This document shows positions 37,652-53,091 of a stretch of 64,000 nucleotides of DNA, piece after piece (position 1 is the first letter of the stretch; each line of letters starts with the position of its first letter). The translations under genes and the position numbers were made by a program. Origin of the DNA: Cryobacterium adonitolivorans (GTDB lineage Bacteria; Actinomycetota; Actinomycetes; Actinomycetales; Microbacteriaceae); the NCBI RefSeq assembly GCF_004402695.1, contig NZ_SOFL01000036.1, positions 62,001 through 126,000 on the forward strand. Reading direction: 5' to 3'. The notes beneath the pieces are model-generated. The model saw only the letters and a program-made list of their open reading frames with translations. It did not search any database and had not been told where the DNA came from.

Positions 37652-38797
37652 CTACACCAGCGACGGCTCCACCGACGCGGTCTCGGCCAGCAGAGCAGCG
37701 AAGAGTGGGTGACTGGCCTCGATCCCCGTAACCCGGGTCACAAAGGTAGCCGGCGCGTGGCTTGCGAGAAGCGACTGGAGCTCAACCGACTGCGCGTCAT
37801 CGAGCACGTCGAATCGAAGTGCTGCACCGTAAGCCCGGACGAGGGCCGCCGGATCGCCCCCGGACTCGGCAAGTCGCGCGGCGGGAGCAATGAAACGCTC
37901 GGTGCGCGAGATCTTGCGTAACGGTTGCCTGCCGATGCGTATGCAGGTGTCTGGAAGATCCGGATCCTCGAATCGCTTGATTGCTTGTGCGATGTAGGCC
38001 GCGAGTTCCTCAGGATCGAAGCCGTGGCTGTCCACGAGCAGCGCCGAGCTTGCGGCGACTACCGCGTCGACCTCGGCGCGCACTGAGGGAATCGCCAGTG
38101 CATCCGCGATGCTCTCGGCCCCGGCCAGAAAGCCGTAGTAGGCCGTCGTGGCGTGGGCGGTGTTCACCGCGAAGAGCTTGCGCTCGATGAAGGGTGTGAG
38201 GTTGTCGACGTAACGAGCATCGGGAATCTTCGGTTCCGCACCCGTGAAGGGTGTGCGGTCGATGATCCACTCGAAGTGTTCGCCGACAACGACGTCAATC
38301 CCGCCGGATGCCTGGCCAGGGACGATGCGGTCGACTGCAGTGTTCGCGAACACAGTCCTGTTGAAGAGAAGCGCTGTGTCGATCCCGCCGTCGGCGACAT
38401 GCTCGCGCAGCGTGTCCGAAGCACCGATCGCGTTCTCGCATGCGAGAATCGCGAGTTTCGGAGCATCCGATGCTCGCGCCAGGATTCCCGCACGAATGAT
38501 CGGCGCGATGAAGGGCAACACAGTTGCGCCTACCGCACAAGTGACGACGTCGGCCGCGGCGACAGCTCGCGCTGCAGCGTCCGGATCGGTCCGCGAATTT
38601 ATCCCGGAAATGCCATCGACGAGGTGAACGACGCCGATCGGGCCGATCTCGCGGACCTCGTATTTCGACGCCGCGTTGATCGCGTCGATGAGTGTGGCTG
38701 ACACGTCGACGAAGGTGACGTCGTAGCCGGCCCGGTGCAGGGCGAGTGCGATGAAGCCGCGGCCGATATTCCCGGCTCCGAAGTGGACGGCACGCAT
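37652..38797 (-). CDS. mtlD: Mannitol-1-phosphate 5-dehydrogenase-like enzyme
   Basis: A 381-residue polyol-phosphate dehydrogenase (E. coli MtlD is 382). The N-terminal Rossmann motif is HFGAGNIGRGF at residue 5, and the catalytic segment KLFAVNTAHATTAYYGF matches KLFTLNTGHAITAYLG of MtlD, with Gly replaced by Ala. The frame is open further upstream, but the ATG at 38797 fits the family and overlaps the previous stop (TAATG). Being last in an operon with a hexulose-phosphate isomerase and epimerase, it may act on a hexitol phosphate other than mannitol-1-phosphate. Confidence 0.88.
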   Translation of the reverse strand: MRAVHFGAGNIGRGFIALALHRAGYDVTFVDVSATLIDAINAASKYEVREIGPIGVVHLVDGISGINSRTDPDAAARAVAAADVVTCAVGATVLPFIAPIIRAGILARASDAPKLAILACENAIGASDTLREHVADGGIDTALLFNRTVFANTAVDRIVPGQASGGIDVVVGEHFEWIIDRTPFTGAEPKIPDARYVDNLTPFIERKLFAVNTAHATTAYYGFLAGAESIADALAIPSVRAEVDAVVAASSALLVDSHGFDPEELAAYIAQAIKRFEDPDLPDTCIRIGRQPLRKISRTERFIAPAARLAESGGDPAALVRAYGAALRFDVLDDAQSVELQSLLASHAPATFVTRVTGIEASHPLFAALLAETASVEPSLV

Positions 38798-39357
38798 TAT
38801 TCGAGGTTTGCGTGGTTGCGCCACAGCGAGGGCATGTCGAGTTCATCCGCGCGGACGATCATGAGCGCCACAGTATCGCCGAGCAGCAGGAGGCATTGCT
38901 CGAACAGGCTCGTCATGGGCTGGATCGACGGGATCTCGTGAGCGAGGTTGAGCTTGGTCTGCACGGGGATGCGAACGAAGTGATCTGCGTAGTCGCGCAT
39001 TGAGCTTTGAGCGTTGGACCCAATGTGCACAACCCTCGCTCCATGTTTCTTTGCCCGCGCAGCTATCGCGAGCGGGATCGCGCTTTCACCGCTCCCGGAA
39101 CCCACGATCAGTACGTCGCGGTCGGTAATCGCCGGCTCCGTAATTTGTCCGACAATGACCGTGTCGACGCCGAAGTGCGCAAGTCGCTTCGCGATCGCCT
39201 GCAGCGAAAGAAGAACACGCCCTACCCCGACGAAGAACACTCGGTCCGCCGAGCGAACCGCGTCCAGCAAGGTGTCGACATCCGCGGCATCGATCGCACC
39301 CATCGTCGCGGAGACTTCGGCCGTGATGTCCTGCTGGGCCTGACCGAACGCGCTCAT
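38797..39357 (-). CDS. 6-phospho-3-hexuloisomerase-like SIS protein
   Basis: A 186-residue single-SIS-domain protein. FFVGVGRVLLSLQAIAKRLA and LIVGSGSGESAIPLAIA form the sugar-phosphate site, and the end SLWRNHANLE closely follows that of known hexuloisomerases (PHI/RmpB of the ribulose monophosphate pathway). PHI interconverts D-arabino-hex-3-ulose 6-phosphate and fructose 6-phosphate. No hexulose-phosphate synthase gene is visible here, so formaldehyde fixation is not supported; work on a 3-ketohexose phosphate derived from a hexitol is more likely. Confidence 0.85.
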   Translation of the reverse strand: MSAFGQAQQDITAEVSATMGAIDAADVDTLLDAVRSADRVFFVGVGRVLLSLQAIAKRLAHFGVDTVIVGQITEPAITDRDVLIVGSGSGESAIPLAIAARAKKHGARVVHIGSNAQSSMRDYADHFVRIPVQTKLNLAHEIPSIQPMTSLFEQCLLLLGDTVALMIVRADELDMPSLWRNHANLE

Positions 39358-40058
39358 GCGGCCACCTGCACAGCGCGGTCGAGGCCTTCACGGACGGCAA
39401 CGTCGAGCAACAGCTTGTTTTCCGCGAGCGTTGCACCCTTTCGGAACAGGCTAGTGCTCCCGAGGACGAGGTCTCTTGCGCCCGCGGCTACCAGGCTCGG
39501 CACCGACTCCAACGAGACCCGGCCGTCGACCTGCAGCACAACCTCGGACCGCGTCGAGTCGAGGAGCGCGCGGAGCGCACTGATCTTTTTCAATGCGTAC
39601 GGAACCTGCGCCTCGCTCGCATCCGTCGCATAGCCCGGATTGATGAGCATCAGGCACACCTTGTCGACTTCCGGCAGGACCCAGTCGAGAACGTTGAGCG
39701 GCGTCGCCGGGTTCAGCGCGAGGCTTGACTTGGCGCCGGAGCGCTGGATCACGCGCAGGAGACGATCCACGTGCCGGGTGCCCTCGACATGAAACGTCAC
39801 CGAATCCATCCCGATGTTGAGCATTTCTTGCACGAAGTAGTCGTTGTCGGTCGACATGACGTGGGCGTCCAGGGTCATGCTCGTGACCTCGCGGATTCGT
39901 TTGGCCGTTTCCAAACCAATGGGCATGCTCGGGCTGAACCGTCCGTCGAGGATATCGACGTGCAGCGTGGTAACTCCGGCTGCTTCCACGGCTTGAATCG
40001 TCGACTCGAGATTTGCCAGATCGCCCGTCATGACAGACGCCGAATATTGAACGCTCAT
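39354..40058 (-). CDS. Ribulose-/allulose-phosphate 3-epimerase family protein
   Basis: A 234-residue (beta/alpha)8 epimerase. The metal ligands HVDILDG, DAHVM and QVDGRVS (two Asp as catalytic acid/base) are intact, and DGRFSPSMPIG corresponds to DGxFxPN of the Rpe family. AlsE-like members convert allulose 6-phosphate to fructose 6-phosphate. GGGAG precedes the ATG at 40058; the gene overlaps the next by ATGA. It is the first gene of the minus-strand operon and faces the PTS gene. Confidence 0.88.
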   Translation of the reverse strand: MSVQYSASVMTGDLANLESTIQAVEAAGVTTLHVDILDGRFSPSMPIGLETAKRIREVTSMTLDAHVMSTDNDYFVQEMLNIGMDSVTFHVEGTRHVDRLLRVIQRSGAKSSLALNPATPLNVLDWVLPEVDKVCLMLINPGYATDASEAQVPYALKKISALRALLDSTRSEVVLQVDGRVSLESVPSLVAAGARDLVLGSTSLFRKGATLAENKLLLDVAVREGLDRAVQVAA

Positions 40059-40143
40059 GAGCGCTCCCTTCAATAGGGGTCGTCCGCCACTTCGATTCAA
40101 TTCGTCGGGTTGACAGGACGACTATTGATGGCGAGACTATCAC

Positions 40144-40161
40144 ATGAGCGCAGTTGCTCAT
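40144..40161. promoter_or_regulatory. Candidate SorC operator
   Basis: Perfect inverted repeat ATGAGC - GCAGTT - GCTCAT between the divergent epimerase and PTS genes, followed by a further half-site ATGAG. A TTGACA (40110-40115) upstream could be the -35 of the PTS promoter. The SorC regulator gene downstream of the PTS gene is the likely ligand-responsive binder. Confidence 0.6.
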
Positions 40162-40206
40162 ATGAGAAAACTGAGAAGATAGAGCAGCACAGACGAAGGA
40201 GTCTCA

Positions 40207-40272
40207 ATGAAAACGTCCAGTGATCCGGTAGCAGAACGCGCTGCCGGTGTGCGGCAAGGCGCTCACCGATGA
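40207..40272 (+). CDS. 21-residue leader ORF overlapping the PTS gene
   Basis: A 22-codon frame (21 residues plus stop) beginning MKTSSDPVAER has the best ribosome site in this region, GAAGGAG five bases upstream of its ATG. Its TGA overlaps the ATG of the PTS IICB gene (ATGA), which itself has no good site, so PTS translation is probably coupled to the leader. The frame is not in phase with the PTS gene. The peptide has no pattern of attenuation (no codon runs). Confidence 0.55.
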   Translation: MKTSSDPVAERAAGVRQGAHR

Positions 40273-41756
40273 GCGCCAGCACGACCACCACGAAGGCATC
40301 GGGAGGCGGGGTCCGCGCGCGCATCCAAGCGTTCGGCGGCTTCCTCACCGCCATGGTGATCCCTAACGTCGGCGCCTTCATCGCCTGGGGCTTTGTTACC
40401 GCCTTGTTCATCCCGACTGGCTGGATGCCGAATGAAGAATTCGCGCAGCTCGTCGGCCCGATGATCAGCTACATGTTGCCGCTTCTCATTGCGTTCACGG
40501 GAGGGCGTCTCGTCCACGGCGCCCGAGGCGGCGTGATCGGCGCAGTCGGTACCATCGGCCTCATCGTCGGCGCCGGCATTCCGATGTTCCTTGGCGCGAT
40601 GATCATGGGCCCACTGAGCGCCTGGCTCCTGAAGCGAGTCGACAGGTTCTTGGAGCCCCGCATGCGCGCGGGGCTTGAGATGCTTGTGAACAACTTCAGC
40701 CTCGGCATCCTGGGCTTCGGGCTTTGCCTGCTCTCATTCGCCGCGATCGGACCTGGAATCGAAGAGCTCAACAAGTTGCTGTTGGCAGGAATCAACGCGC
40801 TAGTTGCAACAGGCGTCTTGCCGTTGCTCGCACTCCTTAACGAGCCGGCGAAAGTTCTCTTCCTCAACAACGTCATCGACCAGGGCGTCTACTACCCGCT
40901 CGGCCTTCAGCAAGCGGCAACCCAGGGCAAGTCCATCTTCTTCATGGTCGCCTCCAACCCTGGTCCCGGGCTAGGGCTCCTCACGGCCTTCCTCTTCTTC
41001 AGCAAATCGAAGTTGATCCGCCGCAGCACCCCCAGCGCGATCCTGATCCACTTCATCGGCGGTATCCACGAGATCTACTTCCCGTACGTCTTGATGAAGC
41101 CGCTTACGATCGTCGGGATGATCGCAGGTGCCGCGTCCGGGATCGCAACGTTCTCGCTCTTTGACGTCGGACTCGTTGCTGGGCCGAGCCCGGGGTCGAT
41201 CGTTTCCTACCTGCTGTTGACCCCCCGTGGCAACTACCTCGGCGTTTTGACGGGTGTACTCGTCGCTGCGATCGTGACGTTCGTCGTGACGGCCGCGATT
41301 CTGAAGTTCGATCGGTTCCGTAGTGGCTCGACGCTGGACGAGGAGGACGAAGGCCTCGAAGCAGCCCAGAAAAAGAGTTCTTCGATGAAGGCGGAGGGTC
41401 GGGGCCATCTCGCCAGCGCCCTCTCTCAGACCGACGCACGCCCCACCTCCATCGTGTTCGCGTGCGACGCCGGCATGGGAAGCAGCGCAATGGGTGCCTC
41501 GGTATTCCGTAAGCGACTCACCAAAGCGGGCATCACCGATATCGCGGTAACTCACGCAGCAATCGAAAACATTCCGATCGACACAGGTCTAGCGGTCATC
41601 CAGCGAAACCTTGTCGAGAGAGCACGGCGTGTGCACCCGCACCTCACGATCATCCCGATCGCCAACTATCTCGGCGACCCTGCCCTCGACGAACTGCAGG
41701 AGAAGCTCGCGGCCATCCCCGCGCCTGAGGCTTCGCGGGATTCTCTGAACGGCTGA
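40269..41756 (+). CDS. mtlA: PTS mannitol-type transporter subunit IICB
   Basis: A 495-residue protein with an N-terminal IIC membrane domain (about 350 residues; GGIHEIYFPYVLMKP is the conserved MtlA loop) and a C-terminal IIB domain whose phospho-Cys lies in VFACDAGMGSSAMGAS. A linker of about 50 charged residues joins them. There is no IIA domain, and none is encoded in the window. It imports and phosphorylates a hexitol. The ATG overlaps the leader ORF stop. Homology points to mannitol; the neighbouring isomerase and epimerase leave room for another hexitol. Confidence 0.92.
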   Translation: MSASTTTTKASGGGVRARIQAFGGFLTAMVIPNVGAFIAWGFVTALFIPTGWMPNEEFAQLVGPMISYMLPLLIAFTGGRLVHGARGGVIGAVGTIGLIVGAGIPMFLGAMIMGPLSAWLLKRVDRFLEPRMRAGLEMLVNNFSLGILGFGLCLLSFAAIGPGIEELNKLLLAGINALVATGVLPLLALLNEPAKVLFLNNVIDQGVYYPLGLQQAATQGKSIFFMVASNPGPGLGLLTAFLFFSKSKLIRRSTPSAILIHFIGGIHEIYFPYVLMKPLTIVGMIAGAASGIATFSLFDVGLVAGPSPGSIVSYLLLTPRGNYLGVLTGVLVAAIVTFVVTAAILKFDRFRSGSTLDEEDEGLEAAQKKSSSMKAEGRGHLASALSQTDARPTSIVFACDAGMGSSAMGASVFRKRLTKAGITDIAVTHAAIENIPIDTGLAVIQRNLVERARRVHPHLTIIPIANYLGDPALDELQEKLAAIPAPEASRDSLNG

Positions 41757-41770
41757 CCCAACGGTGACCC

Positions 41771-41809
41771 CCGGGCAGGACGTGAAGCACGCACTCACGT
41801 CCTGTCCGG
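41771..41809 (+). terminator. Terminator after the PTS gene
   Basis: A 15-bp stem with one G-T pair and a nine-base loop, arms CCGGGCAGGACGTGA and TCACGTCCTGTCCGG, 15 bases after the PTS stop, followed by CTTTCGTT. It separates the PTS gene from the SorC gene, which is then likely to have its own promoter. Confidence 0.8.
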
Positions 41810-41951
41810 CTTTCGTTACCCACTCAAATGCGCCGACGCCGCCGGTCTTCGCGCTCAGTACGCGCTTAGGATCACAGCTAGGCTGCTTGTGCCGCTCGGT
41901 TTCCGGGCCGAAACCATAAAGCCCACGAACTCCGCGAAGCAAGGACGAGAG

Positions 41952-42938
41952 ATGGACGAAGAATTCAGCCGCGACACGTTGGCTACCGTCGCTCGTCGTT
42001 TCTATCTCGAAGACGTCTCAAAGGTGGAGCTCGCCGCCGAATACGGGATTTCCCGCTTCAAAATCGCACGGATTCTCCAGATCGCGCGCGAGTCCGGCGT
42101 TGTTACGATCGAGATTCACAACCGTGACGACCAGCGGCGCTCCCTCGGGGAACGGCTCGCGACCCATCTCGGACTTGATGAGGTCCTTGTCGTCCCGAAT
42201 GGCGACTCGGAGGACGCAGACCGCCAACGCATCGCTTTCGAGTCCGCCCGATACCTCTCCAGAATCACCCGGCCTAACGACACGATCGGTGTCTCGTGGG
42301 GCCGCACCATATATGCGCTCACCGAGTACCTTCGGGACCTGCCCCCCTGCACTGTCGTCCAGTTGACGGGAACGGTCGGCAACGACGTCTCCCAGTCACC
42401 TATGGTGGTTCTCCACCGCATCGCCGCCAGGCACCCGCTGTCGACAATCGGAATTTTCGCGCCCCTTTTCACCGCGACCCCCCTCGCCGCCCAGGTTCTG
42501 CGCTCAGAGAAGAGCATTGCCGACGCACTCGCGACCTACGACCGGCTGACGACGGCCGTCCTGGCGATCGGCTCCTGGAATCCTCCGATCACTCAGATCA
42601 AGCCGCTTCTCGATCCCGAGGAGCTTGCCGCCCTCGACGCTGAACTCGCTGTCGCCGAAGTCGTCGCGAGTTTTCTCGACGCGGACGGGCGAATCATTGA
42701 TCTTCCGTTCAATCAACGACGAATTGCCATCGAGGTCGAACAGTTGCGTTCCACACCCCGGGTCATCGCTGCCGCTGGGTCGGTCGCGAAAGTACCCGCG
42801 ATACACGCTGTCGCCTCGGCGGGGATACTCACCATGCTCGTCACGGATGAAGCAGCCGCGCGTGAGCTCCTCCTGCTTCCGAAGATAACCGCACCCACCC
42901 GGCCCGCTAACAACTCTCCCCTCGAGCACTCCGCGTAG
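41952..42938 (+). CDS. SorC-family sugar-binding transcriptional regulator
   Basis: A 328-residue regulator: N-terminal HTH (VELAAEYGISRFKIARILQI, residues 25-50) and a SorC sugar-phosphate-binding domain (IGVSWGRTIYALTEYL, VQLTGTVGN, LAIGSWNPP). SorC proteins respond to phosphorylated sugars or polyols. The ATG at 41952 has AAGGACG upstream; the frame extends to 41889 but that part lacks a site. It lies downstream of the PTS gene and probably controls the divergent operons through the ATGAGC repeat. Confidence 0.9.
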   Translation: MDEEFSRDTLATVARRFYLEDVSKVELAAEYGISRFKIARILQIARESGVVTIEIHNRDDQRRSLGERLATHLGLDEVLVVPNGDSEDADRQRIAFESARYLSRITRPNDTIGVSWGRTIYALTEYLRDLPPCTVVQLTGTVGNDVSQSPMVVLHRIAARHPLSTIGIFAPLFTATPLAAQVLRSEKSIADALATYDRLTTAVLAIGSWNPPITQIKPLLDPEELAALDAELAVAEVVASFLDADGRIIDLPFNQRRIAIEVEQLRSTPRVIAAAGSVAKVPAIHAVASAGILTMLVTDEAAARELLLLPKITAPTRPANNSPLEHSA

Positions 42939-43282: not shown

Positions 43283-44212
43283 TTAGGGTCTCTGGCCGAA
43301 GGATTGACTTCCCGCAACCCACGCATCGACGTCGCTCCGATACGGGTAGGACAATTGCGCCCCCATCGCCTCAACAGACAATGAGGCCATGGCTGAAGCG
43401 AACTTGACCGCATCACTTAAATTCGATCCGCGTGCCAGCTCGCACGCGGTCGCTCCGACGAAAGCATCGCCAGCGCCCGTGGTGTCGACGACATGAACCG
43501 GGAAGGGCGGCACGGTGTCGATTCCGCCTTGATCGCCGTAGAGGGCGCCAACAGCTCCTAGGGTGATGACGACTGAGCGGACTCCCTGATCGAGGAAGCG
43601 CTGCGCGAGCTCAGGGAAGGAGCTGCTGCCTTCATCATCGAGCAGCGTCCGCGCCTCGTGTTCGTTGACGACGAGCGGGTCGCAGACGGCTAGGGTCTCC
43701 GCAGTGAGCCGTTCAGCGGGGGCCGCATTGAGCAAGACACGAACGCCTCATTTGGCGGCCATCGCCGCGACGTGCTCGACGGTGCGAAGCGGGGATTCGA
43801 GGTTGAGCACGAGGATGTCCGCGTTGGACCATCCGTCAACGGTCGCTTTCGTGAACTCGATGTCGAGGGCGTGGTTCGCCCCGGGAGAGACAACGATGGA
43901 GTTCTCGCCGTCAGGGGTGACGAGGATGACAGTAGTGCCCGTCGGACGATCCACCATGTCGACCCCGCTAACATTCACGCCGACCTCTGCAAGGCGGGAT
44001 CGAATGAGAGCGCCGTTTTCGTCTCTGCCGACACATGCGTAGAAGGCGGTGATGGCTCCGGCTCGCGCGGCGGCGGCGGCTTGATTCCCACCCTTACCTC
44101 CGGCGAACACGCGCAGATCGGATCCGAGCAGCGTCTCACCGGCATCTGGTCTGCGCGGCACTTCCACGACAAAATCGATATTGGCGCTACCCACGACGGC
44201 TACGCGATTCAT
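43283..44212 (-). pseudogene. rbsK: Ribokinase with an in-frame premature TGA
   Basis: The ATG at 44212 begins MNRVAVVGSANIDFVVEVPR, followed by FAGGKGGNQAAAAARAGA, the PfkB/ribokinase start. After VEHVAAMAAK a TGA at 43750-43748 stops translation; the same frame continues without a gap as GVRVLLNAAPAERLT and carries the second signature, VDTTGAGDAFVGATACELA, to the stop at 43283. The lesion is a single nonsense codon (a CGA-to-TGA change would explain it). The product without the ATP site cannot phosphorylate ribose. Readthrough or a sequencing error are the alternatives. Confidence 0.85.
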
Positions 44213-44214
44213 GA

Positions 44215-44720
44215 GAACTGCTCTCTGTCGGAATTGGTTGATGGTTCGGTTGGTGGACTCACGCTGGTACTTGCGTGAGGCCTCGCCGGGTCCGCGCCCT
44301 GATCGCACGGCGCACCGGAGCGCCGCGAGGATCAGTGCGACGATGGTGATGACGTAGGGCGTGAGCAGCGCGAGTGATGAGTTGACGCCCCCCAAGTGCC
44401 AGGCGGTCGGCTAGTCCGTCCGCAGCTCCGAAAATGAGGCAGACGACAAGCGTGGGCAGCGGGCGCCCGGCGGCGAAGATGACCGCCGCCACGACGATGA
44501 AGCCGCGGCCCGAGGTCATTCCGGCGGTGAAGGAGCCGACGCCATTGCGAGTTGCGCGCCGGCGAGGCCGCACAGCGCACCCGACGCGATGATCGAGATG
44601 AATTTGACCTGGAAGACGCGAATGCCTGCAGCAGAGGTGACCGCGACGAGTCCGGACTTGGCGGCCGCGGCGACGATCCTGTCGTCAACCGTGGCGGTGG
44701 ATATAGTCCGATCTCCTTCG
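44215..44720 (-). pseudogene. Decayed nucleoside/sugar ABC permease (YufQ-type)
   Basis: Three frames in series give AGIRVFQVKFISIIASGALC, then GMTSGRGFIVVAAVIFAAGR and ADGLADRLALGG, and finally SLALLTPYVITIVALILAAL. This is the C-terminal third of the simple-sugar/nucleoside (BMP-associated) ABC permease family, with two frameshifts and no N-terminus. It is directly upstream of the broken ribokinase on the same strand, so an ancestral nucleoside-scavenging operon has been lost. Confidence 0.75.
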
Positions 44721-44853
44721 GTGCAGCAGTCCGCGCATCGAACATCCAAGCAAACATTATCCAGGTAAATGGTCAACCGTACTGTTGCTTCGCACAAATG
44801 ACGTGTTAGAGTTTGTCTCTGATCATCTCAGTTCGACTCAAGGGAGAGCGAAG

Positions 44854-46296
44854 TTGTCAACGATTCCCAGTATGAAATCCGCCCCGAATGCCACACTCAG
44901 TTCCGGGCTCAGTAATGGCTCGATCGGCCTCGGTGGAGCGCTTATGCAGTCGATCGCCCAAATCTCCCCCACCCTGGGCATCTTCTATACGATCGCCTTC
45001 ACGACCGGGCAGGCGGGCATATCGGCACCGTTGACATACCTGGCCGCTTTCTTGGTCTGTTTGGTAATAGCGGTGCCAATGCTGGGACTCGCTCGCCACC
45101 TTCCGTCCGCCGGAGGCTTTTACACATACGTGTCTGCTGGCATCGGGCCCAGGTCAGGATTCATTACGGGATGGCTGTACGCCCTCATGGTGACGATCGT
45201 GCCCGCGGCGCTTGCCGCATTCACCGGAGCCGTCCTGCAGGACGAGTTGACCGGCAAGTACGATTTCGCGGTTCCGTGGTGGGTGTACTCAACAATCATC
45301 CTGGCAATCTGCTTCGCCTGTGCTTACCGGGGCATCGTTATCTCAATCAAGTTCCTCATTGTCATGACCATTTTTGAGATGGTCGTCGGACTTGGTCTTG
45401 CCGTTTCGGGGATCCTGAACCCTGGATCTGGTGGGGTGAACCTGGACGGATTCAACCCGGTGAATATCTCCGACGGATCCGGCTTCTTCCTCGCCATCGT
45501 GCTGTCAATCTTCGCTTTTACGGGCTTCGAGAGCGCGGCAGCTGTCGGAGAAGAGTCTCGGAACCCGAAACGCATAATTCCTCAGGCGATTTTTGGCTCA
45601 CTCGTCCTGATCGGGATCTTCTACGTCGTCACTGCCTGGGGATTGCAGATCGGTTGGGGCACCAACGACCTGGAGGCTATGGCCTCGTCACCGACGGCCC
45701 CGGCGTTCGTCCTCGCGGACAGGCTCTGGAGCGGCGCCTCGATTATCGTACTCGTCGCGCTGGTCAACTCGGGCTTGGGCGTGTGCATAGCTTGCACGAC
45801 GAGTGCCACCAGGACCATCTACGGCATTGCCCGCACCGGCGCACTGCCAGCTGCGTTCGCACGAGTTCAGAAGACGCATAAGACGCCGATCACCGCCGTC
45901 GTTGCGCAATCCCTCATTGCCCTGGCCATCTGTCTGGGGGCTGGCCTGCCGCTCGGTCCGTACAACCTTTTCAACGTATTGGGGACCACCGGCACCTTCG
46001 TCTACATCCCGATCTTCGTCATGATGAACATCGCTGCCTTCCGCTACTTCCGGCACAAGCATCCAGAGGAATTCAATGTCTGGGCCTATGTCGTTGCTCC
46101 GATCGTGTCGACGAGCGCTCTGGTCCTGATCGCTTACAACAGCCTCGTGCCGTTGCCTGCCTTCCCGGTCGTTCTCGCACCGTTCATCGCTACTACCTAT
46201 GTCCTGATAGGCGTCGTGATTCTCTTCGGAAGGAATCTTCGGCCAGGAAATCGAGCGTGGATGAACCGAGCTGGCGAACTCCCTGATGTTGACTAG
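44854..46296 (+). CDS. APC-family amino acid/amine permease
   Basis: A 480-residue transporter with 12 hydrophobic segments. ISPTLGIFYTIAFTTGQAG is the broken first helix with its substrate-binding turn, LPSAGGFYTYVSAGIGPRSG the second, and FTGFESAAAVGEESRNPKR the conserved loop after helix six. AGGGAG lies seven bases upstream of the TTG at 44854, which I take as the start; the first ATG is at 44872. It leads a unit containing DeoR, GMC oxidoreductase, double-SIS protein, ROK kinase and phosphatase, so the solute may be an aminated sugar or amino-acid-sugar conjugate (inference). Confidence 0.9.
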   Translation: MSTIPSMKSAPNATLSSGLSNGSIGLGGALMQSIAQISPTLGIFYTIAFTTGQAGISAPLTYLAAFLVCLVIAVPMLGLARHLPSAGGFYTYVSAGIGPRSGFITGWLYALMVTIVPAALAAFTGAVLQDELTGKYDFAVPWWVYSTIILAICFACAYRGIVISIKFLIVMTIFEMVVGLGLAVSGILNPGSGGVNLDGFNPVNISDGSGFFLAIVLSIFAFTGFESAAAVGEESRNPKRIIPQAIFGSLVLIGIFYVVTAWGLQIGWGTNDLEAMASSPTAPAFVLADRLWSGASIIVLVALVNSGLGVCIACTTSATRTIYGIARTGALPAAFARVQKTHKTPITAVVAQSLIALAICLGAGLPLGPYNLFNVLGTTGTFVYIPIFVMMNIAAFRYFRHKHPEEFNVWAYVVAPIVSTSALVLIAYNSLVPLPAFPVVLAPFIATTYVLIGVVILFGRNLRPGNRAWMNRAGELPDVD

Positions 46297-46298
46297 TC

Positions 46299-46315
46299 CC
46301 GTACCGCGGGTACGG
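46299..46315. promoter_or_regulatory. Short inverted repeat between permease and DeoR genes
   Basis: A perfect 7-bp inverted repeat, CCGTACC - GCG - GGTACGG, two bases after the permease stop. It can form a small hairpin (attenuation or mRNA end) or be an operator; there is no U-tract. Confidence 0.45.
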
Positions 46316-46349
46316 CGCCATTCATGCCACCACAAAGAAATGACCGTTA

Positions 46350-47108
46350 ATGAACGCAGAAGTCCGGCAACAAGAAATCCTCACCCAATTGGCCCGCCGC
46401 GGCGAGCTCAGCATCACTGACCTCAGCACCCGATTCGGTGTCTCCGAAATGACCGTGCGCCGGGACGTCAATCAACTCGCAGCTGCAGGGCTCGCGGTCC
46501 GAACCCATGGGCGGGTAGCACCCGCGGCAAGCAGCAGCTTTGAACCACCGTTCAGCCTGCGGACTCGCACGAACGTCGAGGCTAAACGCAAGATCGCAGT
46601 CCTCGCGGCACAGCAGATCATCGATGGGCAAACGATCATCCTCGACGGCGGCAGTACCGGTGTAGCGATAGCCGAGGAACTCATCGGTCGAAATATCACC
46701 GTCTGCGCCCTCAACGTCCGGATCGCGGAAGTCCTGGGCGCCGACCGGGCGACCACGGTCATGATCCCCGCCGGCACCATCCGTACCGGCGAGCTGAGCG
46801 TGATCGGATCCGATGCTGAGGCCTCACTGCGAAGGTTCCGGTTCGACACCTACATCATGACCGCATCCGCAGCCTCGATGGGCAGCGGCTTCACTGAATG
46901 GAATGTGGAAGATGCAGCGGTCAAACGCGCCGCGCTGAGTGCATCCCGGCGAACCCTCGTCGCATTCGACGCCGCCAAGTTCGGCCACGAAGCATTCGCG
47001 AGAATCTGCGAACTTGACGACGTCGACGCCCTCATCACTGACGACACCCTCTCCGCCGAACACCGACAAGAGCTCACGGTCGGTGGCACAGAACTCCTTA
47101 TCGCTTAA
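46350..47108 (+). CDS. DeoR-family regulator
   Basis: A 252-residue DeoR/GlpR regulator: HTH LSTRFGVSEMTVRRDVNQLA at residues 25-45 and a sugar-phosphate-binding domain with ILDGGSTGVAIAEEL and VAFDAAKFGHEAFARI. It lies inside the operon-like unit and probably senses a phosphorylated intermediate made by the ROK kinase encoded downstream. No strong ribosome site is visible. Confidence 0.9.
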   Translation: MNAEVRQQEILTQLARRGELSITDLSTRFGVSEMTVRRDVNQLAAAGLAVRTHGRVAPAASSSFEPPFSLRTRTNVEAKRKIAVLAAQQIIDGQTIILDGGSTGVAIAEELIGRNITVCALNVRIAEVLGADRATTVMIPAGTIRTGELSVIGSDAEASLRRFRFDTYIMTASAASMGSGFTEWNVEDAAVKRAALSASRRTLVAFDAAKFGHEAFARICELDDVDALITDDTLSAEHRQELTVGGTELLIA

Positions 47109-47130
47109 CCCCAATGGAACCAGGAGAACG

Positions 47131-48672
47131 ATGAATTACCCAGGCAACCAACTCCCCGATTCCGTCGAGACCATTGTCATCGGCGGCGGAACAGGGGGCG
47201 CCGCTTTCGCTGGAACCCTCGCTGCGCACAGCGCAGAGACCATACTCCTCGTCGAATCGGGACCGGACTATGGGCCGCAGTCAGAACTGCGATGGCCAAA
47301 CGACATGCTCGATGCCCGATCCATACCTCTCTCCCACGACTACGGCCTCCACACCTCGGCCACAAACGGCATCGGCACCCTGGATCTGCCCCGCGCCCGC
47401 ATCTTGGGCGGCTGCTCAGCTCACAACGGGTGTACCGCGTCGGTTGGTGCCCGACATGACTACGACGAATGGGCGGCCGAAGGAAACCCGGGATGGACCG
47501 CAGCCGAGATCGAGCCCATCCTCGACTGGGTCCGTGACAAATTCCGGGTGCGCCGATACAAGATGGACGAGCTCACCCCACCGCAGCAGGCATTCGTGCA
47601 TGCGGGAATTGCCTCCGGGCTGCCTTTTGCCGATGACCTAGACACCATCGAAGCAGCTGAAGGGATCGGCCCCATGCCGGTCAACGTGCAGGACGGCATC
47701 CGCTACAACAGCGCGTTCGCATTCCTCGACGAAATCCGGGACCGACCCAACTTCACCGTCCTCGCCGACTCGACAGTCACGCGAATTCGGATCGACGACG
47801 GCGTCGCAACCGGGGTATACGTCGACCATCCCGACGGACCAGCCTTCATCGCCGCAAGCCGGATCGTACTCGCTGCCGGGGCCTACCACTCACCTGCACT
47901 GCTTCTCTCATCCGGCATTGGACCGAAGGACGAACTTGGCGATCTTGGCATTGAGGTTCAGCTCGACCTCCCGGGTGTCGGGAAGCACCTCCTCGACCAC
48001 GCCTGCGTTCAGCTCGATTTCACCGGCCAACCCGGACTCGTCGATGAGCTCGCTGCACTGCCGTGGAACCCGGACGAACAAACCGTCGGTCGGGCGAAGT
48101 CGTCGCGGTGCGACGAGGGCCCCTACGACATCCACGTCTTCATGGTCGCGGGCGCCAACAGCGGACATCCAGGCCTGCCACCCATCACCCTCTACGGCGG
48201 TGCGATGCGCGCACGATCCGAGGGCACCGTGACCCTTGGTCCAGACCTCGATGTGAGCCGCCCCATCATCGATCACAGGTACGGAACCGACCCCGACGGA
48301 TACGACCGGCAAGTCCTGAGGGAGTCCCTCGACCTGCTCAACACGATGGTTTCGCAACCCGAGCTTGCCGCCATTCTCGGCGACCCCGTTCCCGGACCCG
48401 GCGGTGACCCGCTGGCAAACATTGTCAATTACTGCCACCCAGCCGGCAGTTGCAAGATGGGTCCCGCTACAGACCCAAACGCAGTGGTCGACCACACCGG
48501 ACGAGTGCACGGGATCGCCGGACTTTTCGTCGCCGACGCCTCGATAATGCCCGCGATCACCCGCGGGAACATCAATCTGCCTACAGCCATGATCGGAGCC
48601 CGCATCGCCGCCGGTCTCCTCGACCTCAGCCCCGCGATGATCGCCCCAACACGCTCCACCCCGAGCGCATGA
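47131..48672 (+). CDS. GMC-family FAD-dependent oxidoreductase
   Basis: A 513-residue flavoenzyme. The FAD motif TIVIGGGTGGAAFAG lies near residue 15, GMC signature one at ARILGGCSAHNG and two at GAYHSPALLLSSGIGP; the active-site His is in YCHPAGSCKMG and the partner Asn in GNINLPTAMIG. GMC enzymes oxidise alcohols or sugars, using oxygen or another acceptor. AGGAG precedes the ATG at 47131, 22 bases after deoR. No signal peptide, so it acts in the cytoplasm. It is an unusual partner for a SIS isomerase and sugar kinase. Confidence 0.92.
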   Translation: MNYPGNQLPDSVETIVIGGGTGGAAFAGTLAAHSAETILLVESGPDYGPQSELRWPNDMLDARSIPLSHDYGLHTSATNGIGTLDLPRARILGGCSAHNGCTASVGARHDYDEWAAEGNPGWTAAEIEPILDWVRDKFRVRRYKMDELTPPQQAFVHAGIASGLPFADDLDTIEAAEGIGPMPVNVQDGIRYNSAFAFLDEIRDRPNFTVLADSTVTRIRIDDGVATGVYVDHPDGPAFIAASRIVLAAGAYHSPALLLSSGIGPKDELGDLGIEVQLDLPGVGKHLLDHACVQLDFTGQPGLVDELAALPWNPDEQTVGRAKSSRCDEGPYDIHVFMVAGANSGHPGLPPITLYGGAMRARSEGTVTLGPDLDVSRPIIDHRYGTDPDGYDRQVLRESLDLLNTMVSQPELAAILGDPVPGPGGDPLANIVNYCHPAGSCKMGPATDPNAVVDHTGRVHGIAGLFVADASIMPAITRGNINLPTAMIGARIAAGLLDLSPAMIAPTRSTPSA

Positions 48673-49730
48673 CTCAGGACACTCCAACCATGACAACAGA
48701 CCTCACGCCCTTCGAAATCGATGTTCTGGAACAGCCGGACGCCCTCAGAGCCCTCGCGCATGCCGCCTCTGAAGTCGGGCTGGATGAACTTGCCCGGCGA
48801 CCGTGGGAGCGGGTGATCCTCACCGGCATGGGTAGCTCCCATTTCGCCGGAATTCCAACCTGGCAAATCCTGGCTCACGCCGGCACGGCTGCATGGGCGA
48901 TCGACGCGGGGCAACTTCTCGATACTCCCGGTTTGATCACGCCACGGTCGCTCGTGATCGCGACCTCGCAATCGGGTGCCAGCGGCGAGATTGTCGAACT
49001 CATTGACCGTCTGGGAGACGGGCGAATTCCGAAGGCCCACCTCGTCGGAATCACGTCCGACCCGGAGTCGCCGCTCGCAACGGCGGCCGACCTTTTCCTC
49101 CCCCTTCACAGCGGTAGCGAAGCGACGGTCAGCACAAAAAGCTACCTCAATTCGCTCGCCGTGCATCGCCAGATCATCGGCGCTTTCACCGGTGAGCACC
49201 GCGACATCATCCGAGAAGGCATCCTCGAGGTCGCAGACAGCGTTGAACGAACACTCGCGACAACTCAGGTCGCTACCCTCGCCGGGCAGGCGCTGAACTT
49301 CTCCCATTACCGATTGGCCACCGTCGGAAAGCGCGACCACGCAGCCACCGCTCTCTTCGCCGGTCTCATTACTAAGGAATCGTCAAAAGTCGCGATTGAG
49401 GGGCATATCGGCGGCCAGTTCCGGCACGGACCCTTCGAACTCGCCGGTCCCGGACTGACCGTATTCATCTACGGCGCGTATCGATCCGACACCGATCTGT
49501 CTATAGCCCACTTGGCGGACGATCTCGTCGCTACTGGGTCGTCGGTCGTACTCATCGGCGACCTGCGCGTCGAGGGCGCAACCACTCTGGGCGACCGCCA
49601 GACCTCTCCCCTGGGAGGGCTGGCAACCGGTGCGGTGATGGCGGAATTGTTCGCCATCGAGCTTGCGAAGGCCAACGGTGTCACACCGGGAGCATTTGCC
49701 TTCGGTAGCAAGATCACCACAGCGCTATGA
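48669..49730 (+). CDS. Double-SIS sugar-phosphate deglycase/isomerase-like protein (FrlB/GlmS/AgaS type)
   Basis: A 353-residue protein with two SIS domains: ILTGMGSSHFAGIPTWQI and VIATSQSGASGEIVELI in the first; the second near residue 190 with LATVGKRDHAATALFAGL. STKSYLNSL and IGGQFRHGPFELAGPG match the GlmS isomerase/FrlB layout. In those relatives the loop reads GE(F/L)(R/K)HGP and its Glu is catalytic; here it is Gln. The ATG at 48669 overlaps the previous stop; a second ATG at 48690 is possible. It probably acts on the product of the ROK kinase, releasing an amine or isomerising the sugar phosphate. Confidence 0.88.
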   Translation: MTQDTPTMTTDLTPFEIDVLEQPDALRALAHAASEVGLDELARRPWERVILTGMGSSHFAGIPTWQILAHAGTAAWAIDAGQLLDTPGLITPRSLVIATSQSGASGEIVELIDRLGDGRIPKAHLVGITSDPESPLATAADLFLPLHSGSEATVSTKSYLNSLAVHRQIIGAFTGEHRDIIREGILEVADSVERTLATTQVATLAGQALNFSHYRLATVGKRDHAATALFAGLITKESSKVAIEGHIGGQFRHGPFELAGPGLTVFIYGAYRSDTDLSIAHLADDLVATGSSVVLIGDLRVEGATTLGDRQTSPLGGLATGAVMAELFAIELAKANGVTPGAFAFGSKITTAL

Positions 49731-50659
49731 GTCCAGAGCCACCCCGCCCGCCAGGCGTTTTTGTCGGGGTTGATCTCGGCGGTACGGCCACGCGGTTCGT
49801 CGTGACGGACGCTCGCTTGCGGGTGCTGGACTCCTACACTGCCTCCACGCCCTCGAATGGATCGGAGAAGGACCTCACGGCCTTCTTCGTAAGCGGCATC
49901 AGCAAAGTGGCAGGGGCCCGCCCGCTCACGGCAATCGGCGTCGGTGCCAGTGGTCCGATCGATCGTGACGGTGTCATCCAGAACCCCGACACCCTTCCCG
50001 CGTTCACCGGCGCTGACATTCCCGGGATCCTGACCGATACCTTTCATCTCCCCAGCTTCATCGAGAACGACGCTGTTACTGCAGCTCTCGGAGAAGCCGT
50101 CTCCGGGGCCGGACGGGGATTCGACACCATCCTGATGGTGACCCTGGGGACAGGAATCGGCGTCAGCATGCTTCAAGGTGGTAAACCCGTCCGCGGCGCC
50201 GACGGGCAACATCCCGAAGCTGGCCACTTGAGCATTGGCGGCCCTGCAGCGCCCTGCTACTGCGGGAGAACGACCTGCTGGGAACAAGCAGCATCCCGGC
50301 AAGCTCTCCAAAGAGCCAGCACAGGCCAGTTACCGCACCCTTCGAACACCTCGGACGACATTCGCGCCGTTGCCGACCTGGCATCCACTGGCGACCGAGG
50401 CGCAATCGAACTTTTAGACAGCTACGGCCTTCGACTGGCCGACGGACTGGCCACCCTCCTGACTATCTACCGACCTGAAATCCTCGTGCTCGGCGGCAGC
50501 GGCGCAACCTACCTCCCGCACTACCGCAGATCGCTTACGGCATCCCTCGACAACCTGACCGATACGTTCCCTCGGCCGACAATCACCGGTGCCGACTTCG
50601 GCGAATACGGTGGGGCGATTGGTGCCGCCGCCTTGGCCCGAACAGGACACCAACTTTGA
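49727..50659 (+). CDS. ROK-family sugar kinase
   Basis: A 310-residue kinase without an HTH: VGVDLGGTATRFVVTDA is the phosphate-1 loop, ASGPIDRDGVI and FIENDAVTAALGEA the sugar site with catalytic Asp, and GTGIGVSMLQGG the phosphate-2 loop. The zinc motif is CYCGRTTCWEQ, a slight change from CxCGxxGCxE. It overlaps the SIS gene by ATGA, so the two activities are coupled: phosphorylation then deglycation or isomerisation. Substrates of the family include glucose, GlcNAc, ManNAc and allose. Confidence 0.92.
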   Translation: MSPEPPRPPGVFVGVDLGGTATRFVVTDARLRVLDSYTASTPSNGSEKDLTAFFVSGISKVAGARPLTAIGVGASGPIDRDGVIQNPDTLPAFTGADIPGILTDTFHLPSFIENDAVTAALGEAVSGAGRGFDTILMVTLGTGIGVSMLQGGKPVRGADGQHPEAGHLSIGGPAAPCYCGRTTCWEQAASRQALQRASTGQLPHPSNTSDDIRAVADLASTGDRGAIELLDSYGLRLADGLATLLTIYRPEILVLGGSGATYLPHYRRSLTASLDNLTDTFPRPTITGADFGEYGGAIGAAALARTGHQL

Positions 50660-50813
50660 GGTTCATCCGCGGTGATAGCTTGTTGAATGGGCACCCCGGA
50701 CCATGAACCAGAATCCACGCCAAACTAACCCCTGCAGTGAACAGGAAACATCGGAATGACATACTCCACCCCTGAATTAACTTGCGTCTTAAGCGAAATC
50801 GTGGTTTTGGGCT

Positions 50814-51506
50814 GTGACCAGCATGCAGCCTGAGCTGGCGGCGGTGCTCTGGGACATGGATGGGACAATAATCCATTCCGAGCCCGTTTGGGGAGAAGCT
50901 CAGCATCGACTCGCTTCGCAACACGATTGTCGATGGACCGACGCGGACGCGACGGCACTGATCGGCTCCACGATGGAGCAGACGGTGCTGGCGCTGCACA
51001 CCGCCGGGATAGGCCTAGACGGTACCGCAATTGCGGAATCACTCGAGACCGCTGTCGTCGACTCGCTTCACGAGCGGATCGTGTGGCGGCCCGGGGCTGT
51101 AGAACTTATCCGAAGCCTTCGACTGGCAGGGATTCCTCAGGCAATCGTAACTACCTCCTCGCAGCGCCTGGTTGACGTCGTTGTTCGGGCCCTCGAAGCC
51201 GAGGTTGCGTTCTCCGCTGTGGTTAGCGGGGACGACGTGTTAGAAGGAAAACCGCATCCTGAACCCTATTTCCAGGCGGCCAATCGCCTTGGCGTCAATA
51301 TCGCGCATTGTGTAGCCATTGAAGACTCCGCCACTGGCCTGAAAGCGGCGATTGCCTCCGGTGCGGTCGCATTAGGGGTACCCTGCGATGCTCCTCTCCA
51401 GGAGGGAGCACACCACACCCAATGGGACACCTTGGCTGGAAGAAATGTAAGGGATATCGAGCAACTGTTCAACGATCGCGTCCGCAGGTCTCACGACCAC
51501 GGATAG
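50814..51506 (+). CDS. HAD-superfamily phosphatase/phosphoglucomutase-like
   Basis: A 230-residue haloacid dehalogenase protein with motif I DMDGTIIHSE, motif II TTSSQRL, motif III GKPHPEPYF and motif IV IEDSATGLKAA; the cap between residues 20 and 95 is the C1 helical type of beta-phosphoglucomutase and sugar phosphatases. The GTG at 50814 and ATG at 50823 are both possible starts; neither has a good site. The 154-base gap after the ROK gene leaves membership of that operon open. Confidence 0.88.
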   Translation: MTSMQPELAAVLWDMDGTIIHSEPVWGEAQHRLASQHDCRWTDADATALIGSTMEQTVLALHTAGIGLDGTAIAESLETAVVDSLHERIVWRPGAVELIRSLRLAGIPQAIVTTSSQRLVDVVVRALEAEVAFSAVVSGDDVLEGKPHPEPYFQAANRLGVNIAHCVAIEDSATGLKAAIASGAVALGVPCDAPLQEGAHHTQWDTLAGRNVRDIEQLFNDRVRRSHDHG

Positions 51507-51858: not shown

Positions 51859-53091
51859 TTAGTCGAGAGGAACAGTACGCGCTACCCGGCCCGTCAGTAC
51901 GGAGGCAAATATCACGACCAGCACGGCGGCGGCGGGCACGACGAGCAGGCCGAATCGCAGGGAAGATACGTCAGCTACTGCCCCGACGACGAGAGGCGAC
52001 AACAGGAAACCCACTCGCAGCAACCAGCTGACGATAGTGAGTCCCGTGCCGGGCTTGAACCCCTGCAGTTCGTCCGCAGCGTGCATAGCTGCCGGGATGA
52101 GGGTGGCGACGCCGAGACCGGCAAGTCCGAACCCGACTATCGTCCCCGGGACGGACGGGAACGCCAGCGCAACGCCCATTCCAACGAAGACGACCACGCC
52201 ACCCGTGCGCGCAACCATACGCTGGCCGAATCGGTCGACAAGTCCGTCGCCGAAGATGCGTCCGAGAAACTGCATTGCCTGGAACGCGATGAACCCGATA
52301 CCGGCGATGAACGCGGACGATTGCAGGGAATCCGAGATGTAGATGGCCGACCACGAGCTTCCCGCGTCTTCGACGACGGCACCCGATGCGGCGATCACCA
52401 CGAGGCCGACTAACGCTCCAAACTGGACGAACAGGCGCGGCCGCCACCTTAGGTTCTGCGCCGTGATGCCGGAATCCACGGCAGGTTCACGGTCGTCCGG
52501 CTCTACGCCAGGCAAAAGGAGCGGTTTGGCGACAACCGCGATGACTCCGAACAGTACCGCCGATCCGGCGAGCTGCATCGCCACGGGTATCTCCAGCTGA
52601 GCGGCAAGCGCGCCAATAATCCCGCCCAAGACGGCCCCAACACTCCACAGCGCGTGAAACGAGTTCAGAATGGACCGCTTGTAGAGCCTCTGTACCCGCA
52701 ATCCGTGCGAATTTTGGGCAACATCCGTGATCGAATCCATCGCCCCCGCAACGAAAAGCGCGCCCGCCAAAACGAACCACACGGGCGCCGCCCCGGCGAC
52801 CAGGATCCCTGCGGCAGACATGACCGTTCCACCTATCGCTACCCTCGACGAGCCGTACCGTCGCACCAGCGCCCCGGCCGTCAGTCCCGCCAGCAGCGCT
52901 CCCAGAGCAAACGCGGCCACAGCGACTCCGAAAGCGATGTTCGAAAGGCCAAGTCCCGCCTTTATTTCGGGATATCTCGGGAGGAGGTTCGCGAAGATCG
53001 CGCCGTTCGTGAGGAAGAGCATCGCCACACCGGCACGTGCGCGGACGGCCTCCCGAGGTGGTCGCAAGGTTGCAGTTATTCTGGAAGTCAT
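51859..53091 (-). CDS. MFS transporter (YbjJ/FucP-like)
   Basis: A 410-residue protein with 12 hydrophobic segments. AMLFLTNGAIFANLLPRYPE starts helix one, and LVRRYGSSRVAIGG is the motif A loop after helix two; VEDAGSSWSAIYI and FGDGLVDRFGQRMVARTG are typical of the YbjJ-type subgroup of sugar or unknown-substrate MFS proteins. It stands alone and is divergent from a gene-poor region. Two short palindromes lie just upstream of its ATG. Confidence 0.88.
   Translation of the reverse strand: MTSRITATLRPPREAVRARAGVAMLFLTNGAIFANLLPRYPEIKAGLGLSNIAFGVAVAAFALGALLAGLTAGALVRRYGSSRVAIGGTVMSAAGILVAGAAPVWFVLAGALFVAGAMDSITDVAQNSHGLRVQRLYKRSILNSFHALWSVGAVLGGIIGALAAQLEIPVAMQLAGSAVLFGVIAVVAKPLLLPGVEPDDREPAVDSGITAQNLRWRPRLFVQFGALVGLVVIAASGAVVEDAGSSWSAIYISDSLQSSAFIAGIGFIAFQAMQFLGRIFGDGLVDRFGQRMVARTGGVVVFVGMGVALAFPSVPGTIVGFGLAGLGVATLIPAAMHAADELQGFKPGTGLTIVSWLLRVGFLLSPLVVGAVADVSSLRFGLLVVPAAAVLVVIFASVLTGRVARTVPLD

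What the first reader, a model, noticed from the sequence alone, without database searches (positions are those of the whole stretch)
44854..51506. Candidate new pathway: permease, DeoR, GMC oxidoreductase, FrlB/GlmS-like SIS protein, ROK kinase, HAD phosphatase
Seen: gene order and ATGA overlaps tie SIS protein to kinase and to the GMC gene. Known: fructosamine (Amadori) catabolism in E. coli uses an APC permease (FrlA), a double-SIS deglycase (FrlB), a kinase (FrlD, PfkB family) and a regulator. Here the same roles are filled, but the kinase is ROK-type and a GMC flavoenzyme is added. Inference: an Amadori compound, aminated sugar or sugar-amino-acid conjugate is imported, phosphorylated and deglycated, with an oxidation step not in the known pathway.
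Basis: partly seen in the sequence, partly recalled or inferred. Interest (0 to 1): 0.75.

Follow-up and report, generated by a model that had tools for sequence, protein, structure and literature searches.

The report
Likely amino-polyol breakdown gene cluster
Five neighbouring genes found together in unrelated soil and plant bacteria look like an undescribed pathway that takes in an unusual nitrogen-bearing sugar alcohol, oxidises it, tags it with phosphate and strips off the nitrogen to feed central metabolism.

Summary
They form a real unit: 16 of 27 homologous loci carry all five, and Paraburkholderia carries the set with an unrelated GMC. HAD is not part of it (2 of 27). The Amadori reading is not supported: sequence, active-site residues, a tree and a predicted fold place the SIS protein with the GlmS isomerase domain and glucosamine-6-phosphate deaminases, not FrlB. 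The GMC step looks integral: GMC enzymes of two lineages accompany SIS+ROK, and groups that differ in GMC lineage share a ~50% identical sugar importer. Binding proteins tested from GMC-bearing loci rank polyol binders (sorbitol, ribitol) first; those from GMC-less loci rank maltose/trehalose binders first. Best reading: an aminated polyol is imported, oxidised to an amino sugar, phosphorylated, and deaminated to a ketose-6-phosphate. The substrate is inferred, not shown. A plain polyol or a mannopine-like route remain possible. No description of this gene set turned up in the papers searched.

The parts
44738..44744 (+). candidate operator half-site TCGAACA upstream of the permease
   Evidence: CGAACA is the most over-represented 6-mer in 15 regulatory regions of actinobacterial/Deinococcus loci (17 seen, 2.5 expected; z 7.2 against a maximum of 4.3 in 200 first-order Markov simulations). 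It was first noticed by eye, so it is post hoc. The 15 are part of the 22 regions, where 7 of 22 lack it.
44854..46296 (+). APC-superfamily permease (importer)
   Evidence: Pfam AA_permease 142 bits; 68-85% identical orthologues in actinobacterial loci, 48% in Paraburkholderia
46350..47108 (+). DeoR/GlpR-family regulator
   Evidence: DeoRC 137 bits, HTH_DeoR 64 bits; DeoR in 24 of 27 loci
47131..48672 (+). GMC flavin oxidoreductase, choline-oxidase-like; cytoplasmic by the look of its N-terminus
   Evidence: GMC_oxred_N 105 bits and GMC_oxred_C 87 bits. His98 (covalent-FAD His), His436 and Asn482 match choline oxidase and are invariant in 15 sequences.
48669..49730 (+). double-SIS protein of the GlmS-isomerase/NagB-II type; predicted amino-sugar-6-phosphate deaminase/isomerase (start may be 48690)
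49727..50659 (+). ROK-family sugar kinase, predicted amino-sugar 6-kinase
   Evidence: Pfam ROK 179 bits; CYCGRTTCWE motif and END motif in the sequence; ROK in 24 of 27 loci
50814..51506 (+). HAD phosphatase-like gene next door, probably not part of the module
   Evidence: HAD_2 96 bits; beside ROK in only 2 of 27 loci

Best explanation
A DeoR-regulated, horizontally spread catabolic module for an aminated polyol, most simply a 2-amino-2-deoxyhexitol or an N-substituted relative. Step 1: the APC permease (elsewhere an ABC importer with a polyol-type binding protein) takes it up. Step 2: the GMC flavoenzyme oxidises the hydroxyl beside the amine, giving an amino sugar. Step 3: the ROK kinase makes the amino-sugar 6-phosphate. 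Step 4: the SIS protein, working like GlcN-6-P deaminase (NagB-II), releases the amine and gives a ketose-6-phosphate, probably fructose-6-phosphate, for glycolysis. Relatives without the GMC gene (Erwinia, Klebsiella) would import the amino sugar itself. Shown: gene content, conservation, family and active-site assignments. Inferred: substrate, order of steps and products.
For: Unit: the orthologous five are together in 16 of 27 loci, plus Paraburkholderia with another GMC. GMC enzymes of two lineages, 29% identical to each other, accompany the SIS protein: the window's in actinobacteria (with ROK) and Deinococcus (without), and a BetA-like one, with SIS and ROK, in Paraburkholderia, Shinella, Ensifer and Aminobacter. 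The importer links them: the binding proteins of Microbacterium/Phytoactinopolyspora (window-type GMC) are 48-51% identical to those of Shinella/Ensifer/Aminobacter (BetA-type GMC). Polyol: binding proteins of three GMC-bearing loci hit 4rya 'Sorbitol' first or 5iai first and 4rya third; 5IAI holds ribitol (PMC8468352, passages read). The two tested from GMC-less loci hit maltose/trehalose binders first, at 161-174 bits. Amine: APC transporter in 18 of 27. GlmS-type SIS: E237, H253, K348, S155 and K157 are invariant in 25 of 25 and line up with E. coli GlmS; FrlB lacks the Lys and STK. Best folds are GlmS/GFAT isomerase domains and a GlcN-6-P deaminase. In one GMC-less relative the nearest kinase is BadF-type. 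A choline-oxidase-like GMC suits a hydroxyl beside an amine.
Against: No substrate was tested. The polyol link rests on the ranking of distant homologues for three binding proteins, with no such protein in the window itself. 5iai is not exclusive: the GMC-less Erwinia and UBA4005 proteins also hit it at 62 and 84 bits, against 63 bits for the Microbacterium protein, for which a trehalose/maltose binder ranks second. APC names are generic. NagB-II equivalog score is 49 bits against a cut-off of 430. K348 lies in a C-terminal stretch modelled with pLDDT under 50. The choline-ammonium Glu312 is Cys292 in the GMC enzyme. The GMC model is poor (pLDDT 65). Kribbella (no GMC, no ROK), Deinococcus (no APC, no ROK) and UBA4005 (none of the other four) carry incomplete sets. 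The SIS tree has long branches.
Confidence: 0.4

Rival explanations
1. Non-aminated rare polyol pathway. The GMC enzyme oxidises a rare hexitol or pentitol to an aldose or ketose, ROK phosphorylates it, and the SIS protein acts as a plain aldose-ketose isomerase.
For: Polyol-type binding proteins. SIS isomerases of non-aminated sugar phosphates exist (KdsD and PHI models score 48 and 24 bits on the window protein).
Against: APC-superfamily importer in 18 of 27 loci. GlmS/NagB-II active-site set including the C-terminal Lys. Closest folds are amino-sugar enzymes.
Confidence: 0.2
2. Mannopine-like or Amadori route. A 1-amino-1-deoxyhexitol (mannityl or glucityl amine, N-methylglucamine type) is oxidised at C2 by the GMC enzyme to an Amadori compound, phosphorylated and deglycated to glucose-6-phosphate plus amine.
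For: The same logic is known for mannopine: MocC converts mannopine to deoxyfructosyl glutamine and MocD is needed to degrade it further (PMC6341043, passages read). FrlA, too, is a transporter of the APC kind (locus; family recalled). Catalytic Glu and His and the FRHGP stretch are shared with FrlB.
Against: The SIS protein is closer to GlmS/NagB-II than to FrlB or Mas2, and the FrlB and Mas2 rows lack the Lys and the STK motif. MocC itself was not fetched; its family (SDR) is recalled.
Confidence: 0.17
3. Ordinary glucosamine (or other free hexosamine) use: ROK is a glucosamine kinase, the SIS protein a GlcN-6-P deaminase, and the GMC gene serves a side reaction.
For: SIS type; ROK models of GlcNAc and ManNAc kinases match weakly (71-80 bits, below cut-off); S. 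meliloti and Deinococcus relatives of the SIS family sit beside nagA.
Against: Seven of 10 module-bearing genomes searched already hold a NagB-like gene of at least 230 bits, the window's genome among them at 232; 4 of the 10 pass the curated cut-off of 236.9, the window's does not. The GMC association is strong (21 of 27) and involves two lineages. Polyol-type binding proteins.
Confidence: 0.13

Closest known systems
E. coli frl operon (fructoselysine)
   Same: importer (FrlA, APC type as recalled), double-SIS protein, sugar kinase and regulator in one locus
   Different: FrlB-type SIS, PfkB-type kinase (recalled), FrlC epimerase, FrlR regulator; no oxidation step
Agrobacterium mannopine catabolism (MocC/MocD)
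   Same: oxidation of an aminated polyol to an amino-ketose before further breakdown; works like it (PMC6341043, passages)
   Different: MocC is, as recalled, an SDR-type oxidoreductase, and here the oxidoreductase is GMC; the Ti-plasmid SIS protein (Mas2, name recalled) groups with FrlB; moc genes themselves were not fetched
NagB-II glucosamine-6-phosphate deaminase (SIS type)
   Same: SIS fold, catalytic Glu/His/Lys, phosphate loop
   Different: two relatives fetched beside nagA score 278 and 309 bits on the NagB-II model, the window protein 49; no GMC or APC gene is annotated in those two stretches
Choline oxidase (Arthrobacter globiformis, 2jbv)
   Same: best PDB sequence match (176 bits); covalent-FAD His, His-Asn pair
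   Different: choline-binding Glu312 is Cys in all 15 aligned
Polyol ABC binding proteins 4rya (sorbitol) and 5iai (ribitol)
   Same: top-ranked solved relatives of the importer in the three ABC-type GMC loci tested
   Different: distant; the window uses an APC permease instead

Membership tests
Frl-type fructosamine catabolism | APC or ABC importer in the locus | tested here: met
Frl-type fructosamine catabolism | FrlB-family SIS deglycase | tested here: not met
Frl-type fructosamine catabolism | PfkB-type kinase FrlD | tested here: not met
   kinase is ROK. A PfkB/ribokinase-like gene lies 0.5 kb upstream of the permease on the other strand, split by a stop; in the core-gene BLAST over L050-L072 its only listed match was in L071's separate Frl-like set
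GlmS-isomerase / NagB-II SIS enzymes | catalytic Glu, His and C-terminal Lys; SQSG phosphate loop; STK motif | tested here: met
   E237, H253, K348, S100-Q101-S102-G103, S155 and K157 invariant in 25 of 25; GlmS row (GlmS roles recalled)
GlmS-isomerase / NagB-II SIS enzymes | curated NagB-II or GlmS model score above cut-off | tested here: not met
   49 of 430 and 65 of 418 bits
GlmS-isomerase / NagB-II SIS enzymes | deaminase activity on an amino-sugar 6-phosphate | not testable with these tools
   needs assay
GMC oxidoreductases, choline-oxidase-like | both GMC domains, His-Asn pair, covalent-FAD His | tested here: met
   (residue roles recalled)
Choline oxidase/dehydrogenase proper | choline-binding Glu312; curated model score | tested here: not met
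   Cys292 instead; 230 of 605 bits
ROK sugar kinases | ROK domain with zinc Cys motif and catalytic Asp | tested here: met
   CYCGRTTC and END in the sequence (roles recalled)
Mannopine (Moc) catabolism | oxidation of an aminated polyol to an amino-ketose | not testable with these tools
   substrate unknown

The most novel reading that the evidence does not exclude
An undescribed, horizontally transferred route for amino-alditol catabolism (oxidise the amino polyol with a GMC flavoenzyme, phosphorylate with a ROK kinase, deaminate with a GlmS-type SIS enzyme). It would have arisen at least twice from different GMC and transporter stock and would reveal an overlooked amino-polyol nutrient in soil, plants and lichens.
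Probability: 0.32. Interest if true: 0.65.

Novelty: new variant of a known kind. Interest (0 to 1): 0.5.

Why it matters
If right, aminated sugar alcohols would be a carbon and nitrogen source common enough for bacteria in three phyla (Actinomycetota, Deinococcota, Pseudomonadota) to maintain and exchange genes for them, some on plasmids. It would give a function to proteins now named only 'SIS domain-containing', 'GMC family oxidoreductase' or 'choline dehydrogenase'. It would also separate this module from Amadori deglycases, with which it is easily confused.

Tried and rejected
FrlB/Amadori assignment of the SIS protein: rejected on sequence, residues, tree and fold. HAD as a pathway member: rejected (2 of 27). 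Choline as substrate of the GMC enzyme: unlikely (Glu312 to Cys). Known opine genes: two stretches of an octopine Ti plasmid held a SIS/SDR pair (Mas2/Mas1, names recalled) but no gene annotated as moc. S. meliloti pSymB stretch: no annotation. An S. meliloti kinase, SM_b21217, is known to serve glucosamine use (PMC11378808, passages read); the Shinella SIS protein finds no S. meliloti plasmid record at E <= 1e-20, so that system is not the near kin of this one. NCBIfam gave no name to the polyol-type binding proteins and weak MalE/GanS names to the others. An Embleya plasmid with a 37% APC relative has no annotation. Paper searches on this gene combination, on mannopine genes and Amadori deglycases, on S. 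meliloti glucosamine genes (43), on meglumine, aminomannitol and amino sugar alcohols (68, 69, 99) and on the PDB ligands (98): no title or abstract start in the listings described this gene set; most listed papers were not opened, and only CC0/CC BY/CC BY-SA papers are searched. led to a passage that reports provisional N-acetyl-D-galactosaminitol in a soil chitin consortium (PMC9599572, passages read), a weak hint that amino alditols occur there. GMC search over 396 phylum genomes at E <= 1e-110 found only the window's own copy, but few candidates per genome were scored (3 in the rows shown), so it may miss others. Structure model of the GMC enzyme too weak (pLDDT 65) for pocket analysis.
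Full report
Observation. The window lies in an unnamed 3.67-Mb genome. The six genes are present as described. The permease TTG start at 44854 is credible: it follows AAGGGAGAGC and lines up with the orthologue's GTG start. SIS and ROK overlap by ATGA. The GMC/SIS ATGA is real, but the SIS protein may start at 48690.

Is it a unit? SIS orthologues at E <= 1e-100 occur in 5 of 199 genomes of the family (own included); at E <= 1e-30, 6 of 396 in the order sample (own included) have one. The three other genomes of the same genus have no match, so the module is patchy. A scan of the genome collection (84,980 species) gave 20 loci, 18 from actinobacteria and two from Erwinia; plasmid records added Deinococcus, Klebsiella, Paraburkholderia, Shinella, Ensifer and Aminobacter. 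tabulates 27 loci of the main SIS clade: window, L038, L043, L050-L072 and L074. APC is in 18, DeoR in 24, ROK in 24 (only 33-35% identical in L058-L060), a GMC in 21, and the orthologous five in 16. HAD is in 2 and the MFS gene downstream in 2. These loci were chosen by SIS homology, so the counts describe what travels with this SIS protein, not the converse. Gene order varies: in Pseudarthrobacter and Arthrobacter it is DeoR divergent, then SIS-ROK-APC-GMC; this makes the grouping more telling than synteny between close kin.

What is the SIS protein? It scores 51 bits against E. coli GlmS, 37 against AgaS, 30 against FrlB and 25 against the Ti-plasmid Mas2. A profile of 9 orthologues finds GlmS/GFAT structures and GlcN-6-P deaminases high in its list and a FrlB-like deglycase (3eua) last of 31, at 9e-5. 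E237, H253 and K348, with S155/K157 and the SQSG loop, are invariant in 25 sequences. E. coli GlmS has them all; FrlB and Mas2 keep the Glu and His but lack the Lys and STK (roles recalled). In a tree of 35 proteins the main clade (23 rows) is well supported (100/99), and FrlB+Mas2 are split off from all others, GlmS and the nagA-linked deaminases included (95/90); the root is a midpoint and long branches call for caution. The AlphaFold model (pLDDT 87.7, but under 50 in residues 344-353 where K348 lies) has as its 50 best folds GlmS/GFAT isomerase domains, the GlcN-6-P deaminase 7kqa and a putative phosphosugar isomerase, 3fj1 (lower ranks were not shown). It scores far below the curated NagB-II cut-off (49 of 430), so it is a relative that probably works like one, not a filed member.

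What is the GMC enzyme? Its closest solved relative by sequence is choline oxidase (176 bits); by fold, from a weak model, 5-hydroxymethylfurfural oxidase and choline oxidase. The covalent-FAD His (His98), His436 and Asn482 are kept; the choline-binding Glu is Cys292. The proteobacterial loci carry a different, BetA-like GMC (Paraburkholderia: 650 bits on the choline dehydrogenase subfamily model, above its cut-off), 29% identical to the window's. This GMC stands beside SIS and ROK in Paraburkholderia, three Shinella/Ensifer records and Aminobacter; a further record, Shinella zoogloeoides, shows SIS and GMC 1.9 kb apart in the hit lists. GMC enzymes of two lineages beside SIS/ROK pairs argue that oxidation belongs to the pathway.

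What is the substrate? Three transporter types serve the module. The ABC-type loci are informative. Binding proteins from Microbacterium and Phytoactinopolyspora (window-type GMC) are 48-51% identical to those of Shinella, Ensifer and Aminobacter (BetA-type GMC), so both groups probably import the same compound. In the PDB their best relatives are 4rya 'Sorbitol' (97 and 84 bits) and 5iai (63 bits), which holds ribitol (PMC8468352, passages read); a trehalose/maltose binder ranks second, second and third in the lists. The GMC-less loci tested (Erwinia, Micrococcaceae UBA4005) have another binding protein, closest to maltose/trehalose binders (174 and 161 bits); they also hit 5iai at 62 and 84 bits, so the contrast is one of ranking, while 4rya is not among the hits shown (the best 60 of 511; E <= 1e-15). 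NCBIfam names agree as far as they go: none for four proteins from GMC loci, weak MalE/GanS for the GMC-less two. So the GMC gene goes with a polyol-like cargo and its absence with a sugar-like cargo, on five binding proteins tested in the PDB search out of ten seen in the module loci. Nitrogen is suggested by the APC importer and the GlmS-type SIS. Together: amino polyol to amino sugar to amino-sugar 6-phosphate to ketose phosphate plus amine. In L064 the nearest kinase is a BadF-type protein weakly like a GlcNAc kinase (62 of 370 bits). Seven of 10 module-bearing genomes searched also hold a NagB-like gene of at least 230 bits, 4 of them above the curated cut-off, so plain glucosamine is not an obvious reason for the module.

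Regulation. CGAACA is the top 6-mer of 15 regulatory regions (17 against 2.5 expected). It was noticed by eye first, the 15 are a part of the 22 regions, and 7 of those 22 lack it. It is a candidate DeoR operator, no more.

Comparison. The Frl pathway shares roles but not enzyme families, apart from the APC importer and the wider SIS family. The mannopine pathway is the closest in logic: MocC converts mannopine to deoxyfructosyl glutamine, and MocD acts after it (PMC6341043, passages read). The predicted SIS chemistry here is of the glucosamine type rather than the fructosamine type. No description of this gene set was found in the searches named under Tried and rejected.

Verdict. A real, conserved and transferable catabolic module with a twice-recruited oxidation step; a new combination of known enzyme families; substrate predicted, not shown.

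Noticed in passing
window 37652-42938: A second sugar cluster next door: mannitol-1-phosphate 5-dehydrogenase (365 bits, above cut-off), 6-phospho-3-hexuloisomerase (168 bits, above cut-off) and PTS EIIC/IIB, with a ribulose-phosphate-epimerase-like gene and a SorC-like regulator judged by eye; perhaps another hexitol pathway.
   Followed up: partly
window 43283-44395: A PfkB/ribokinase-like gene on the - strand (by eye; 28% match to a Klebsiella PfkB) is read as two ORFs in one frame, 43748-44395 and 43283-43735, parted by a stop.
   Followed up: no
L071 1-5688 and 9029-13370 (Klebsiella quasipneumoniae plasmid): A Frl-like set (SIS, PfkB, amino-acid ABC transporter, TIM barrel) lies about 4 kb from the DeoR/SIS-ROK-MFS module. 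The SIS query hits 103 Klebsiella plasmid records.
   Followed up: partly
L046-L049 (Microbacteriaceae): A related SIS protein (31-33% identical) sits in all four loci with a CUT1-type binding protein of one family and a ROK relative elsewhere in the locus; the two clusters tested carry a GH5-like hydrolase by Pfam. Possibly another amino-sugar pathway.
   Followed up: partly
L084 18142-21000 (Agrobacterium Ti plasmid): The SIS protein taken to be mannopine synthase Mas2 (name recalled) groups with FrlB (95/90), fitting its reverse Amadori chemistry (recalled).
   Followed up: no
window 51859-53091 and L052 10973-12250: An MFS gene downstream has a 65% orthologue right after ROK in Subtercola vilae; possible exporter or accidental neighbour.
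   Followed up: no
L064 2596-8888 (Micrococcaceae MAG): A second, divergent SIS protein, a gene with a weak ROK match (25%) and a BadF-type kinase surround an Erwinia-like CUT1 importer.
   Followed up: partly
L061 6211-10041 (Kribbella antibiotica): APC and SIS without GMC or ROK, but with a zinc-type alcohol dehydrogenase gene just upstream; possibly a replacement for the GMC enzyme.
   Followed up: no
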